From a bacterium (lineage in GTDB: Bacteria; Patescibacteriota; Minisyncoccia; UBA11713; 2-01-FULL-45-33), in NCBI GenBank assembly GCA_030648495.1, contig JAUSHV010000033.1, positions 1 to 33,248 on the forward strand: a stretch of 33,248 bases of DNA, in the 5' to 3' direction. The first letter of the stretch is position 1, and each line of letters begins with the position of its first letter. A model generated the notes under the pieces. That model searched no databases and was not told the origin of the DNA. It was given only the letters and a program-made list of their open reading frames with translations. The position numbers were made by a program, and so were the translations under genes. This document shows positions 15,677 through 19,576 of this stretch, piece by piece.

Positions 15677-18028
15677 ATGAGTATAGACAAAATAATCATT
15701 CTCGTCGTAAGCTCTTTGGGTATGTGGTTTACCTATTGGTTTTTCCTCGCGAAAAAAGAGAAAGAGGTTCATGGCCACGATCATAAAGAAAATCATATGA
15801 ATCAAAATAAAAAAACTTTTTCGATTAAGGGCATGCATTGCGCGTCATGCGTGATGATACTTGAAGATTCGCTTAAAAAAGTAGAAGGCGTAACGCAGGC
15901 CGTTGTTAATCTTTCGACTGAAAAAGCAACTGTGACATATGATTCAGCAAAAGTTACCGACGAAAAACTTTCTTCGGCCGTTTCCAATGTCGGCTATCAG
16001 GCGTTGATTGGCGAGGAAATAAGAACAGAGGACGAGGAACAGAAAGAAAAACAGCGTGATCTCCGCGACTTGCGGCGTAAGGTTTCAGTCAGCCTTGTTT
16101 TGGGCGGGTTAATTTTGTGGGGCGCTTTCCCGGGACTTATGAAAACTGCGCCGATGATTCTGCAGAATTTTTGGGTGCAATTATTGCTTGCTACTCCGGT
16201 TCAATTTTGGGCCGGTTTTGGTTTTTACCGGGCTACGATTTCGGCTTTGAAACATAGGACTGCGAATATGGATACGTTGGTTGTAATCGGCACGACAGTT
16301 GCGTATGTGTATTCTGTTTTTGTTACTATGTCGCCGGAGCTTCTGATAAAAATCGGCATTGAGCCGATGCCTTATTTTGATACCGCGGCGATAATTATCG
16401 GATTGATTTTGCTCGGCCGTTATTTTGAAGCAAAGGCCAAGGCCGGCACATCGGAAGCAATTAAAAAACTTATCGGGCTTCAGGCAAAGACAGCCAGAGT
16501 ATTAAGAGACGGAAAAGAAATAGATATACCGATAAGCGAAGTAATAATCGGCGATATTATCCGCGTCCGTCCGGGCGAAAAAATTCCTGTCGATGGTATT
16601 ATCGTTGAAGGAGAGTCATCAATTGATGACTCTATGATTACGGGCGAGAGCATGCCGGTTGATAAGGCTAAAGGGGATGTGGTGGTCGGAGCAACAATGA
16701 ATAAGACCGGTACTTTTACTTTTAAAGCCACAAAAGTCGGGGCAGATACAATGCTGGCCCAGATTATTAAATTGGTGCAGGAGGCCCAGGGAAGTAAAGC
16801 TCCGATTCAGCGGCTTGCCGATTTGGTGTCTTCTTATTTCGTACCGGTAGTAATAATGCTTTCTTTTCTAACTTTTGCCGTCTGGTATATTTTTGGCCCC
16901 GCTCCTACGCTTCTATTCGCGTTGCTCAACACTATCGCTGTTCTTATTATTGCCTGCCCCTGCGCGATGGGCCTAGCTACCCCTACCGCCATTATGGTCG
17001 GCACAGGCAAAGGAGCGGAGCAGGGTATTCTTATCAAAGATGCCGAGAGCTTGGAAACCGCGCACAAAATTAACACAATTATTTTTGATAAAACCGGCAC
17101 GCTGACAAAAGGACAGCCGGAAGTAACTGATATCGTCGTTTTTGGTTCAATAGACAAGGATGAATTATTAAAATTAGCAGGGTCAATTGAGAAAGGCTCG
17201 GAGCATTCACTTGCCGAAGCGATTGTTAAAGCTGCAGAAGCAAAAAAATTTACATTATCTAAGGTTGAAAAATTTCAGGCCATTCCGGGACACGGAGTTG
17301 AAGGCGTTGTTGACGGTAAAAGAATTGCTTTTGGCAATAAGCGGTTGATGGATAAGGAAGGTATTGATATCGGATTGGCCGGAAATAAAATCGGCGAGAT
17401 GGAAAGTGCCGGCAAAACAGTTATGATGATTGGCATAGAAAATAAACTTGCCGGACTTATTGCCGTTGCGGATATAATTAAAGAAAGCGCTTTGGGAGGG
17501 CTCTCTGCTTTGCAGAAGCTCGGCATAGAGGTGGTTATGATAACGGGAGACAATCAAAGGACGGCCAGCGCTATCGGACACAAATTAGGTATCACCAGAA
17601 TTCTTGCTGAAGTGTTGCCTGACCAAAAAGAAGCAGAGGTGAGAAAAATTCAGGCGGAAGGAAAAGTTGTAGCCATGGTCGGCGACGGTATAAACGATGC
17701 CCCCGCGCTCGCCGCCGCGGATGTTGGGATTGCAATGGGAAGCGGAACGGATGTTGCCATTGAAGCGGCGGATATTACTCTCATTAATAAAGATTTGAAA
17801 TCAGTAGCGGCCGCGGTTGTATTGTCAAAAAAAACAATGCGTACCATCCGCCTTAATTTATTTTGGGCATTCGGATATAATGTGATTTTAATTCCCGTCG
17901 CGATGGGCGCACTTTATCCTTTTTTCGGTCTTTTGCTAAATCCGATATTTGCCTCAATTGCCATGGCCACAAGTTCAATTTCAGTGGTATCAAATTCACT
18001 TCTCCTCAAAAGGAAGAAGATTGTTTAA
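15677..18028 (+). CDS. copA: Copper-translocating P-type ATPase (CopA-like, P1B)
   Basis: A 783-residue ATP-driven Cu(I) exporter. It has one HMA domain with MHCASC (C55, C58), eight transmembrane segments in the usual P1B layout and the ion-binding CPC motif (C427-P-C429). Further motifs are the TGES-type actuator loop ([12 protein letters not shown]), the phosphorylated Asp471 in [15 protein letters not shown] and [11 protein letters not shown]. Two features are unusual. An additional N-terminal helix (about 4-25) followed by a His-rich stretch (HGHDHKENH) precedes the HMA domain, and the nucleotide-binding HP dipeptide is H510-S511 (SEHSLA) instead of SEHPLA. A later ATG at 15797 would remove the extra helix. 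The -10-like TAAACT 6 nt before 15677 supports the longer form. Confidence 0.96.
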
Positions 18029-18043
18029 AATCTCACAAATAAA

Positions 18044-18064
18044 AAAACCGAATTAATCGGTTTT
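18044..18064. terminator. Bidirectional terminator between copA and the ASCH-like gene
   Basis: Perfect 8-bp stem AAAACCGA / TCGGTTTT with a 5-nt loop, flanked by A-runs and T-runs on the two strands. It also covers the last codons and stop of the converging minus-strand gene. Confidence 0.8.
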
Positions 18065-18439
18065 CGCGTGTTCGTTAAATTGTACTACCGGCACGTCGTT
18101 TACTCGAAGGATTTCGAATATAATTACCGCTCCCATGGTGTTCCAAGTAAGATCAGGATAAAAATTTGCAAGATCTTTCAAGTATTCCTTATCGAAATAA
18201 TAACCGTTTTTTTCAGTATCTTTTTTATTTGCTCTTAGGCGTCTGAATTCGGCTATTTTTGTGTCCGCCAAAGCGCGAAGCAAAATGTTGAGCCCGTCCT
18301 TAAACTCGCCTACAAAAATCTCGTCTTTCGCAAAATCATGCGAACCTTCTCTGTATTTTCTGACAGTAAATCTTTTACTTCCGTTCAATGACGGCGACAT
18401 CAAGCCGTCTCCAAAGATCAGCCTTTTCATTTTGGTCAT
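18053..18439 (-). CDS. ASCH/PUA-like small protein
   Basis: A 128-residue soluble protein. The pattern MTKMKRLIFGDGLMSPSLNGSKRFTVRKYREGSHDF ... KDEIFVGEF resembles ASCH-domain proteins, which are PUA-fold predicted RNA-binding domains with a basic G-K-x-x-T-x-R segment. The assignment is from that motif only. A strong Shine-Dalgarno sequence (AGGAG) lies 7 nt before ATG 18439. An inverted repeat covers part of that site (18449-18468), which could allow translational or transcriptional control. Its transcript ends at 18044-18064. Confidence 0.72.
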   Translation of the reverse strand: MTKMKRLIFGDGLMSPSLNGSKRFTVRKYREGSHDFAKDEIFVGEFKDGLNILLRALADTKIAEFRRLRANKKDTEKNGYYFDKEYLKDLANFYPDLTWNTMGAVIIFEILRVNDVPVVQFNEHAKTD

Positions 18440-18445
18440 GCTATT

Positions 18446-18491
18446 CTCCTAAGAATTTAATCTCTTAGTAAAATAGCATACGCCTAAGAAT
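18446..18491 (-). promoter_or_regulatory. Leader with inverted and direct repeats ahead of ASCH-like gene
   Basis: CTAAGA (18449-18454) and TCTTAG (18463-18468) form a 6-bp inverted repeat around an 8-nt spacer, and the arm overlaps the AGGAG ribosome binding site. The 9-bp word CCTAAGAAT occurs at 18448-18456 and again at 18483-18491. A TGCTATTTT -10-like element lies within the block. It may be an operator or an SD-hiding hairpin. Confidence 0.35.
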
Positions 18492-18524: not shown

Positions 18525-18574
18525 CTACTCGTTCTTTATCTTGAGCTTTTGGATGCGGGTTTTGTCGAGTTTTG
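18525..18574 (-). pseudogene. Duplicated 3' end of hsp20
   Basis: This stretch repeats the last 14 codons and the stop of the hsp20 gene at 19109-19158. Of 49 aligned bases, 48 are identical. The single difference is silent (ATC to ATA), and the stop codon is TAG instead of TAA. It still reads LDKTRIQKLKIKNE followed by stop. It lies 584 bp from the original, on the far side of the toxin-antitoxin genes. Confidence 0.9.
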
Positions 18575-18597
18575 TTTAAGAACTTCGCAATGGTGGA

Positions 18598-18867
18598 TTA
18601 TTTGTATGCTCCGCCGCGCCAGTCAATGACTTCAATAAAAACAACAAAATGATCAAATTTAAACTCCGCAATAATACGGAGCTTCCCTTTTCGAATTCTA
18701 TGAAAGCCTTCCCACTTCCCGCTTAGTTTTTTAATATTAACATTAATATCTTCGCCTCTAAATTTTCCAACAGCGTCTTTAATGGCGCTAAATATCTCAT
18801 TTTGCGGGATTTGATTTCTTGCAAGAAACTTCTCAGCTTGTCTGCTGAGACCTATCCGCAAGTTCAT
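18598..18867 (-). CDS. RelE/ParE-superfamily toxin
   Basis: An 89-residue basic protein of the RelE/ParE fold: N-terminal helix pair (IGLSRQAEKFLARNQIPQNEIFSAIKDAVGKF), then beta strands KKLSGKWEGFHRIRKGKLRIIAEF and the C-terminal FVVFIEVIDWRGGAYK that corresponds to the usual ...GHRxxVY ending. Members either cleave mRNA on the ribosome or poison gyrase. The typical catalytic residues cannot be assigned firmly here. Its start overlaps the upstream antitoxin gene by 4 nt, the usual coupling in toxin-antitoxin pairs. The pair sits between two copies of the hsp20 3' end. Confidence 0.85.
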   Translation of the reverse strand: MNLRIGLSRQAEKFLARNQIPQNEIFSAIKDAVGKFRGEDINVNIKKLSGKWEGFHRIRKGKLRIIAEFKFDHFVVFIEVIDWRGGAYK

Positions 18868-19058
18868 GCTTTGAGCAAATAACTTTTAGAAACTTTTCTA
18901 GTGGGCTTTTTGTAAAGTTTTTCTATTTCTTTCTGTTCCTTTTTAGACACGTAAGGCAATAATAAAGCGCCAAATTGCATAAATTTAGAATCGAATGTTT
19001 TGGCGACACTATCTTGAATTAAGTTTTTTAGCCGTTTTTCTGTTATCTGAATAGTCAT
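18864..19058 (-). CDS. Antitoxin partner of the RelE/ParE-type toxin
   Basis: A 64-residue protein translated before the toxin and overlapping it by 4 nt (ATGA). The N-terminus (MTIQITEKRLKNLIQDSVAKTF) looks like a short DNA-binding or dimerisation strand-helix. The C-terminal, Lys-rich part (EQKEIEKLYKKPTRKVSKSYLLKA) would wrap the toxin. It is assigned as antitoxin from size and position; the sequence does not match a classical RelB or Phd pattern that I can recognise. AGGAAC before the ATG may be a weak ribosome binding site. Confidence 0.78.
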   Translation of the reverse strand: MTIQITEKRLKNLIQDSVAKTFDSKFMQFGALLLPYVSKKEQKEIEKLYKKPTRKVSKSYLLKA

Positions 19059-19108
19059 GTTCCTATTGTTGCAAGAATGAAAGAAAAAATCAATAGGTTG
19101 CGAACTAC

Positions 19109-19576
19109 TTACTCGTTCTTGATCTTGAGCTTTTGGATGCGGGTTTTGTCGAGTTTTGGGAGACGGATGGTAACAAGGCCGTTTTTGATTGTTGCTTCGG
19201 ATTCGTCGGGGTCTATCTCCTGTGGCAAGAGGACAGAACGGCTAAACGCGCCCCAGTAGAGTTCCTGGTAAAAATAATCGCTTCCCGCTACCTCTTTCAA
19301 TCTTTCGCGTTTTCCGGAGAGCGTGATAGAGTCTTGCGAAATAGACACGTCCAAATCCTCGGGTTTTACGCCCGCAACGATGCTCTGGACGATAATTTCA
19401 TCAGGCGTTTGCCAGACGTCAACCGTAAGCTGGGCCTCTTCCTCGGTTTCAACGGACGTTGCTGCTACGGTGGCGCGCACAGAACCCAAATTTGTAGGCT
19501 TTAAATGCACCGAATTCATTGCTTCGTCTATTTTTACGCTACCGGTAAGCCTTTCAAAAAATGAACGTTTTTCCAT
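19109..19576 (-). CDS. Small heat-shock protein Hsp20/IbpA family
   Basis: A 155-residue ATP-independent holdase chaperone. The alpha-crystallin domain spans about 48-145 (LTVDVWQTPDEIIVQSIVAGVKPEDLDVSISQDSITLSGKRE ... YWGAFSRSVLLPQEIDPDESEATIKNGLVTIRLPK). It has a short N-terminal arm and a short basic C-terminal tail. No CIRCE element is visible upstream. A TATAAT on the minus strand (19612-19607) would give a leader of about 24 nt, without a clear Shine-Dalgarno sequence. The last 14 codons and the stop are repeated at 18525-18574, beyond the toxin-antitoxin pair. Confidence 0.94.
   Translation of the reverse strand: MEKRSFFERLTGSVKIDEAMNSVHLKPTNLGSVRATVAATSVETEEEAQLTVDVWQTPDEIIVQSIVAGVKPEDLDVSISQDSITLSGKRERLKEVAGSDYFYQELYWGAFSRSVLLPQEIDPDESEATIKNGLVTIRLPKLDKTRIQKLKIKNE

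What the first reader, a model, noticed from the sequence alone, without database searches (positions are those of the whole stretch)
18525..19158. hsp20 3' end duplicated on both sides of a toxin-antitoxin pair
Seen: the last 14 codons and stop of hsp20 are repeated 584 bp away with 48 of 49 bases identical; the one change is silent and the stop changes TAA to TAG. The 534 bp in between hold only the toxin and antitoxin. Inference: the pair entered downstream of hsp20 and brought or created a replacement gene end, as integrative elements do at gene 3' ends.
Basis: partly seen in the sequence, partly recalled or inferred. Interest (0 to 1): 0.7.

Follow-up and report, generated by a model that had tools for sequence, protein, structure and literature searches.

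The report
Toxin-antitoxin cassettes swapped at gene ends
In a tiny uncultured bacterium a toxin-antitoxin gene pair sits between two copies of the end of a heat-shock gene, and the same scar recurs around other toxin-antitoxin pairs at other genes, where the pattern of differences shows that the pair usually arrived joined to a donor's gene end while the old end was left behind as a remnant.

Summary
In detail: 49 bp of the hsp20 3' end (18526-18574) are repeated at 19110-19158 (98%, E about 1e-17), on either side of a RelE-fold toxin and its antitoxin. It is not a single curiosity. In the same genome HicAB, HicBA and a RelE-like pair are fenced in the same way (by ends of rny and comM, and an unassigned 36-bp repeat). 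In other Patescibacteria the ends of rplB, gap, fba, uvrB, doxX and rpiB do the same, sometimes in arrays. The decisive result: over 18 such gene-end pairs the two copies differ at 112 synonymous but only 28 non-synonymous codons (20%; 66-80% expected for a duplicated, decaying fragment). So the copies are ends of two functional alleles, not a target-site duplication. In one genome the intact comM carries a foreign end, and the genus-typical end is the remnant. Best explanation: small cassettes, often toxin-antitoxin pairs, enter by homologous recombination at a conserved gene end, bringing the donor's end; the recipient's old end survives beyond the cassette. No integrase or common site was seen. 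A relative has the same pair after hsp20 without the repeat, so pair and scar are separable. Closest precedents: homology-facilitated illegitimate recombination; 'long target duplication' of restriction systems.

The parts
19109..19576 (-). hsp20 (small heat-shock protein), 155 aa, intact
   Evidence: Pfam HSP20 E=3.2e-17; orthologs in 51 of 55 relatives
19110..19158 (-). TA-proximal copy of the hsp20 3' end (end of the intact gene, stop TAA)
   Evidence: direct repeat D1
19059..19108 (-). spacer holding the presumed TA promoter, abutting the hsp20 stop codon
   Evidence: sequence; in G003 the homologous pair also starts directly after the hsp20 stop; promoter function inferred
18864..19058 (-). 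antitoxin, 64 aa, no Pfam family; overlaps the toxin start (ATGA)
   Evidence: conserved beside the toxin in 10 homologous loci
18598..18867 (-). toxin, 89 aa, RelE fold
   Evidence: no Pfam/NCBIfam hit; AlphaFold2 model pLDDT 89.7; Foldseek best PDB hits RelE1, YafQ and RelE2 toxins, E 7e-5 to 2e-4
18526..18574 (-). distal remnant of an hsp20 3' end (untranslated fragment, stop TAG); by analogy with comM the recipient's old gene end
   Evidence: direct repeat D1; analogy
18053..18439 (-). 128-aa ORF of unknown family between the remnant and copA; also absent from G002, a separate insertion or part of the recipient's flank
15677..18028 (+). copA-type P-type ATPase, convergent; directly abuts hsp20 in G002
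   Evidence: family assigned from sequence, not by a domain search

Best explanation
The hsp20-TA-hsp20' structure is the scar of a recombination event between related genomes. A donor fragment carrying [end of hsp20]-[TA pair] was joined to the recipient's hsp20 by homologous recombination in the conserved gene end. The donor's end now completes the gene. The other end of the fragment was joined, without homology or by homology to the gene end itself, about 50 bp inside the recipient's own hsp20 3' end, so that the recipient's old end survives as a remnant beyond the TA. The same process, usually but not only with TA pairs, has acted at many gene ends in Patescibacteria and places different TA systems at the same gene ends (comM, rny, rplB). 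The lethal cost of losing a TA may explain why repeat-flanked, hence unstable, cassettes persist. Shown: the repeats, their recurrence, empty sites, the synonymous excess, and the foreign end of G003 comM. Inferred: DNA uptake, the order of the two junctions, the role of addiction, and that hsp20 follows the class rule.
For: 1) Recurrence in the same genome: HicAB between 47-bp copies of the rny 3' end, HicBA between 36-bp copies of an unassigned sequence, a RelE-like pair between 53-bp copies of the comM 3' end. 2) Recurrence elsewhere: rplB with HicBA and RelE-TA, three copies; gap, three copies; rpiB 5' end; fba; uvrB with a MazF-like pair; doxX with HicBA; a 796-aa gene with HicAB and ParE, three copies. 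3) Detected fences around 10 of 76 toxin loci of three families, 8 of 500 random positions, 0 of 27 hsp20 loci (Fisher against random p = 1.7e-5). 4) Copy differences in 18 gene-end pairs: 112 synonymous, 28 non-synonymous codons (20%). Neutral expectation 79.5% (minimum 67.8% of 2000 simulations), and 66% even if the gene collects only silent changes; p = 9e-29. 5) G003 comM: remnant r1 matches genus-mates G006/G009 at 14 and 13 sites where the intact end does not, the reverse at 1 and 1 (p = 0.001, 0.002); the intact end is nearest another genus, G005. 6) The most distal remnant in G007 and G003 is followed by the downstream sequence of the empty site in G006. 7) Different TAs at one gene end: comM in G000 and G007, rny in G000, G009, G008. 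8) All ten genomes of the family encode a ComEC-type competence protein; competence and recombination genes are reported for Patescibacteria (PMC12455944).
Against: For hsp20 itself there are only two differences, both silent, so donor and recipient cannot be told apart and a fresh duplication is not excluded. The right-hand junction always falls 36-230 bp inside the same gene end, which plain illegitimate joining does not predict (selection against losing downstream genes, or homology with the gene end, must be assumed). Non-TA cassettes are fenced too (recG with a methyltransferase, rodA, uvrA with GIY-YIG), so TA is not required, and the excess over GIY-YIG plus hsp20 controls is not significant (p = 0.07). 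In G007 and G000 the comM comparison does not show which end is foreign, nor does doxX in G008.
Confidence: 0.64

Rival explanations
1. Insertion with long target duplication: the TA pair inserted into a staggered break about 50 bp wide at the end of hsp20, and filling-in duplicated the target; the copies then diverged.
For: The geometry is the same, and restriction-modification systems have been described as inserting with long, variable target duplications of the order of 100 bp (PMC3874152; PMC3031569). In the window the copies are nearly identical.
Against: The class shows 80% synonymous differences, impossible for decay after duplication. In nine gene-end cases the repeat ends within 4 nt of the stop codon, which a random staggered break does not explain. 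The G003 comM copies have different affinities.
Confidence: 0.17
2. Site-specific integration of a small element at attB sites in gene 3' ends, as for integrative elements, with an integrase acting in trans or lost.
For: Displaced 3' ends that restore the gene are typical of such elements (established knowledge).
Against: No recombinase seen between the copies in the cassettes read; targets are at least ten unrelated genes, including two 5' ends (rpiB, Pyr_redox_2 gene); no common motif seen at junctions by eye.
Confidence: 0.06
3. Pair and duplication are unrelated: the pair has long sat behind hsp20, and a recent local rearrangement copied the gene end.
For: G003, another genus, has the homologous pair (toxin 74% identical) directly after hsp20 with no copy, while the copies in G000 are 98% identical, hence young.
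Against: Repeats hugging the TA at both sides recur at many other loci, so a causal link is likely; G003 could have lost its remnant. A young exchange between TA+ and TA- alleles fits both facts.
Confidence: 0.1

Closest known systems
Insertion with long target duplication of restriction-modification systems (Nobusato et al. 2000 Gene 259:99; Furuta et al. 2010 NAR), known here through PMC3874152 and PMC3031569
   Same: A two-gene addiction module flanked by direct copies of host sequence of about 50-150 bp, without a recombinase; empty sites in relatives.
   Different: Here the copies differ mostly at synonymous sites and one end can be foreign, so they are two alleles' gene ends rather than a duplicated target; the cargo is type II toxin-antitoxin, and different TAs occupy the same gene end.
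Homology-facilitated illegitimate recombination in natural transformation (PMC2884548, PMC3240628)
   Same: One end of incoming DNA recombines by homology, the other joins without it; invoked for small variable segments of bacterial genomes.
   Different: It has been described for S. pneumoniae, Acinetobacter and others; a systematic scar of conserved gene ends around TA pairs was not found in the papers searched.
Single reports of TA pairs between direct repeats: Microcystis MaOC1 locus (152-bp repeats, PMC7935541) and Mycoplasma mycoides (PMC8562856)
   Same: TA module fenced by two direct repeats; ParE/RelE superfamily in Microcystis.
   Different: There the repeats start after the stop codon and hold inverted repeats (Microcystis) or are left unexplained; no gene-end identity or synonymous test was reported in the passages read.
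RelBE/YafQ-DinJ type II toxin-antitoxin systems
   Same: The toxin model matches RelE-family toxins; small upstream antitoxin overlapping the toxin.
   Different: No Pfam or NCBIfam model recognises either protein; toxicity untested.

Membership tests
Insertion with long target duplication | Direct copies of host sequence of tens to about 100+ bp on both sides of the module | tested here: met
   49 bp in the window; 36-230 bp elsewhere
Insertion with long target duplication | Uninterrupted single-copy site in a relative | tested here: met
   G002 hsp20-copA without TA or copy; comM empty in six relatives
Insertion with long target duplication | Both copies derive from the one target, so later differences are neutral in the non-functional copy | tested here: not met
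   112 synonymous against 28 non-synonymous over 18 pairs, expected 66-80% non-synonymous; inconclusive for hsp20 alone
Homology-facilitated illegitimate recombination | One junction within homologous sequence, donor sequence from there on | tested here: met
   G003 comM: mosaic with foreign end; synonymous excess; not resolvable for hsp20
Homology-facilitated illegitimate recombination | Second junction without homology, or with a few bp only | tested here: inconclusive
   Right junction lies inside the same gene end; donor sequence unknown, so microhomology cannot be scored
Homology-facilitated illegitimate recombination | Uptake of DNA by competence | not testable with these tools
   ComEC family present in all ten genomes; activity unknown
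Site-specific integrative element | Tyrosine or serine recombinase in the element | tested here: not met
   Only toxin and antitoxin between the copies in the window; none seen in other cassettes read
Site-specific integrative element | Common attachment core at different integrations | tested here: inconclusive
   Junction sequences of 14 cases compared by eye, none shared; no formal motif search
RelE/ParE superfamily toxin | RelE fold | tested here: met
   pLDDT 89.7; Foldseek to RelE1/YafQ/RelE2, E 7e-5 to 2e-4, TM 0.60-0.63
RelE/ParE superfamily toxin | Toxicity neutralised by the partner | not testable with these tools
   needs expression assay

The most novel reading that the evidence does not exclude
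Conserved gene ends act as portable homology arms for a class of recombinase-free mobile cassettes. A repeat-cassette-repeat unit can loop out as a circle bearing one gene end and re-enter any relative at that gene by ordinary homologous recombination without breaking it. Toxin-antitoxin addiction holds the repeat-flanked unit in place, and arrays grow by successive entries at the same gene end.
Probability: 0.25. Interest if true: 0.82.

Novelty: new variant of a known kind. Interest (0 to 1): 0.62.

Why it matters
Chromosomal toxin-antitoxin pairs are scattered and clearly move, yet many carry no sign of a mobile element. The scars described here are directional records of single transfers: they name the gene used, can tell donor end from recipient end, and can be read in any genome. 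The synonymous-difference test separates gene-end exchange from target duplication and can be applied at once to the older restriction-modification cases. It also gives sequence evidence of recombination between related ultra-small bacteria that mostly cannot be cultured.

Tried and rejected
Viral contigs hold no relative of the toxin, so phage carriage found no support. Pfam, NCBIfam and PADLOC do not name the two proteins. Terminal inverted repeats of the cassette were considered (TTCGCAA near both ends in the window), but they are short and no transposase is present. Random target duplication was the working idea until the synonymous count. The first count includes spurious ORFs and intergenic repeats (for example L092) and gave 42% non-synonymous; the curated set was chosen by gene identity, with three pairs aligned by hand. 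Some enclosing repeats are tRNA genes, palindromic repeats or internal protein repeats and are not used as cassettes in the argument. The doxX comparison with G004, G006 and G007 did not show which copy is native, and hsp20 against G002 shows no clear mosaic break. uvrB relatives in family f29 were located but their DNA could not be fetched.

Full report
What is in the window. On the minus strand hsp20 (19109-19576) is followed by an antitoxin (18864-19058), an overlapping toxin (18598-18867) and a 49-bp copy of the hsp20 3' end (18526-18574), 48 of 49 bases identical to the gene's own end at 19110-19158. The chance value is about 1e-17 to 1e-19. Neither small protein has a Pfam, NCBIfam or PADLOC match, but the toxin model (pLDDT 89.7) matches RelE-family toxins such as M. 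tuberculosis RelE1/RelE2 and YafQ. The gene order, 4-nt overlap and size are those of a type II TA pair. The closest named relatives are Candidatus Giovannonibacteria, Patescibacteria.

Empty site and relatives. In G002, of the same genus (hsp20 91% identical), hsp20 runs straight into the convergent copA: no TA, no copy, and no 128-aa ORF. G003, of another genus, has a homologous pair (toxin 74% identical) starting directly after the hsp20 stop, but no copy beyond it. G006, a genus-mate of G003, lacks the pair at that place. So the pair is mobile or often lost at this gene end, and pair and scar can be separated.

The scar is not unique. The toxin has about ten clear homologs in 384 same-class genomes and 47 tblastn-confirmed loci in the named genome set. 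Comparing 3 kb on each side showed direct repeats hugging several of these pairs: rpiB 5' end (47 bp), a phosphomannomutase-like 3' end (77 bp, decayed), gap 3' end (70 bp, three copies), ribosomal protein L2 3' end (99 bp, three copies, with a HicBA pair in the first interval and the RelE-type pair in the second), and the fructose-bisphosphate aldolase 3' end (82 bp) (families). A self-comparison of nearly the whole window genome found the same around HicAB at RNase Y, HicBA at an unassigned 36-bp repeat, a RelE-like pair at comM, and a two-gene unit with a DUF5674 protein at the 5' end of an FAD oxidoreductase gene. Non-TA inserts are fenced too: a methyltransferase at recG, several ORFs at rodA, two ORFs at a phosphomannomutase 5' end. 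A second genome (G103) gave a MazF-like pair at uvrB, a HicA locus at a 434-aa gene, and HicAB plus ParE units at a 796-aa gene present in three copies of its end (toxin loci). Names for recG, uvrA, uvrB and the MazF-like pair rest on reading the sequence, not on a domain search.

How common. With one automatic rule, a detected fence encloses 4/29 HicA, 3/30 ParE and 3/17 window-type toxin loci of this phylum (window excluded), 2/28 GIY-YIG loci (one of them tRNA genes), 0/27 hsp20 loci and 8/500 random positions. TA loci exceed random positions (p = 1.7e-5); against the two gene controls p = 0.07. So TA pairs are over-represented relative to the genome at large, but the mechanism is not shown to be TA-specific. 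Most TA loci show no detectable scar.

Two alleles, not one duplicated target. If the scar were a target duplication, the copies would start identical and the untranslated one would decay neutrally, mostly by amino-acid changes. Over 18 gene-end pairs (one per cassette, chosen by gene identity) the differences are 112 synonymous and 28 non-synonymous codons. Simulated neutral change gives 79.5% non-synonymous (minimum 67.8% in 2000 runs), and 66% even when the gene itself adds only silent changes. A wider uncurated set points the same way (42% against 78%). Both copies were therefore shaped as parts of working genes before they came to lie side by side. Stop codons differ too (TAA/TAG in the window, TGA/TAA at uvrB), and in nine gene-end cases the likeness stops within 4 nt of the stop codon, as expected if what follows is the cassette on one side and native flank on the other.

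Which end is foreign. At comM the family offers a natural experiment. Six genomes have an empty site. G000 and G007 carry different RelE-like pairs, each followed by a comM remnant; G003 carries two remnants with other ORFs between. The most distal remnant in G007 and G003 is followed by the flank seen at the empty site of G006, so it is the native end. In G003 the remnant r1 matches genus-mates G006 and G009 at 14 and 13 sites where the intact end does not, against 1 and 1 the other way (p = 0.001 and 0.002), and the intact end is nearest to G005 of another genus. Here the gene wears a foreign end. RNase Y shows the same traffic: HicAB with remnant in G000, a RelE-type pair directly before ymdB in G009, a MazF-like unit further down in G008.

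Mechanism. The simplest account is uptake of DNA from a relative, homologous recombination in the conserved gene end, and a second junction inside the recipient's own gene end, leaving gene-cassette-remnant. ComEC is encoded in all ten genomes of the family, and competence and recombination genes have been reported for Patescibacteria (PMC12455944). Homology-facilitated illegitimate recombination is known from competent bacteria (PMC2884548; PMC3240628, abstract). What it does not explain well is why the second junction stays within about 36-230 bp of the same gene end. Re-entry of a circle carrying one gene end, by homology on both sides, would explain this and the arrays, but no circle has been seen. 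Addiction may explain the persistence of otherwise unstable repeat-flanked units; this is inference.

For hsp20 itself. Two silent differences in 49 bp agree with a recent exchange between TA-positive and TA-negative relatives, but cannot by themselves exclude a fresh duplication. I file hsp20 under the class by anatomy and mark that step as inferred.

Known or new. Restriction-modification systems with long, variable target duplications (reviewed in PMC3874152; PMC3031569) are the nearest precedent by anatomy, but the defining expectation of one duplicated target is not met here for the class. Single TA loci between direct repeats are reported in Microcystis (PMC7935541) and Mycoplasma (PMC8562856), unexplained in the passages read. 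In the open-access papers searched I found no account of TA pairs carried with a donor gene end. The library lacks most subscription journals, so this is not proof of novelty.

Noticed in passing
window 18438-18479: A 17-bp near-perfect inverted repeat (ATGCTATTCTCCTAAGA ... TCTTAGTAAAATAGCAT) spans the start of the 128-aa ORF 18053-18439, like an autoregulatory operator.
   Followed up: no
L145 (G000 contig C2) 4037-4169 and 4874-5006: 133-bp direct repeats, 100% identical, enclose a single 119-aa ORF without Pfam match: a possible very recent cassette.
   Followed up: partly
L318 (G103 contig C1, record 151484-153078): Three copies of a 107-113-bp repeat, 100% identical, enclosing ORFs of 129 aa and of 180+110 aa; not a gene end.
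   Followed up: no
L150 700-2609 and L152 6839-10284 (G000 contigs C7, C9): Three copies each of the recG and rodA 3' ends with non-TA inserts (methyltransferase, DUF5671 protein, aspartyl-protease-like protein, 578-aa ORF): the process also carries other genes.
   Followed up: partly
L091 2093-3423: Two different RelE-type TA pairs in tandem, each followed by a copy of the 3' end of the same 300-aa gene.
   Followed up: partly
L082 4478-5380, L098 4487-6034, L077 1150-2092 (Ignavibacteria): The same toxin family between direct repeats near the ends of large genes in another phylum.
   Followed up: partly
L296 (G074 contig C36) 1317-1858: A GIY-YIG gene between 87-bp copies of a uvrA-like 3' end; the last codons differ silently (TACCTCCGAAAG / TATTTGAGAAAG), again two alleles.
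   Followed up: yes
G003 contig C36 3220-3843: A second, diverged RNase Y gene (68% identical) in G003.
   Followed up: no
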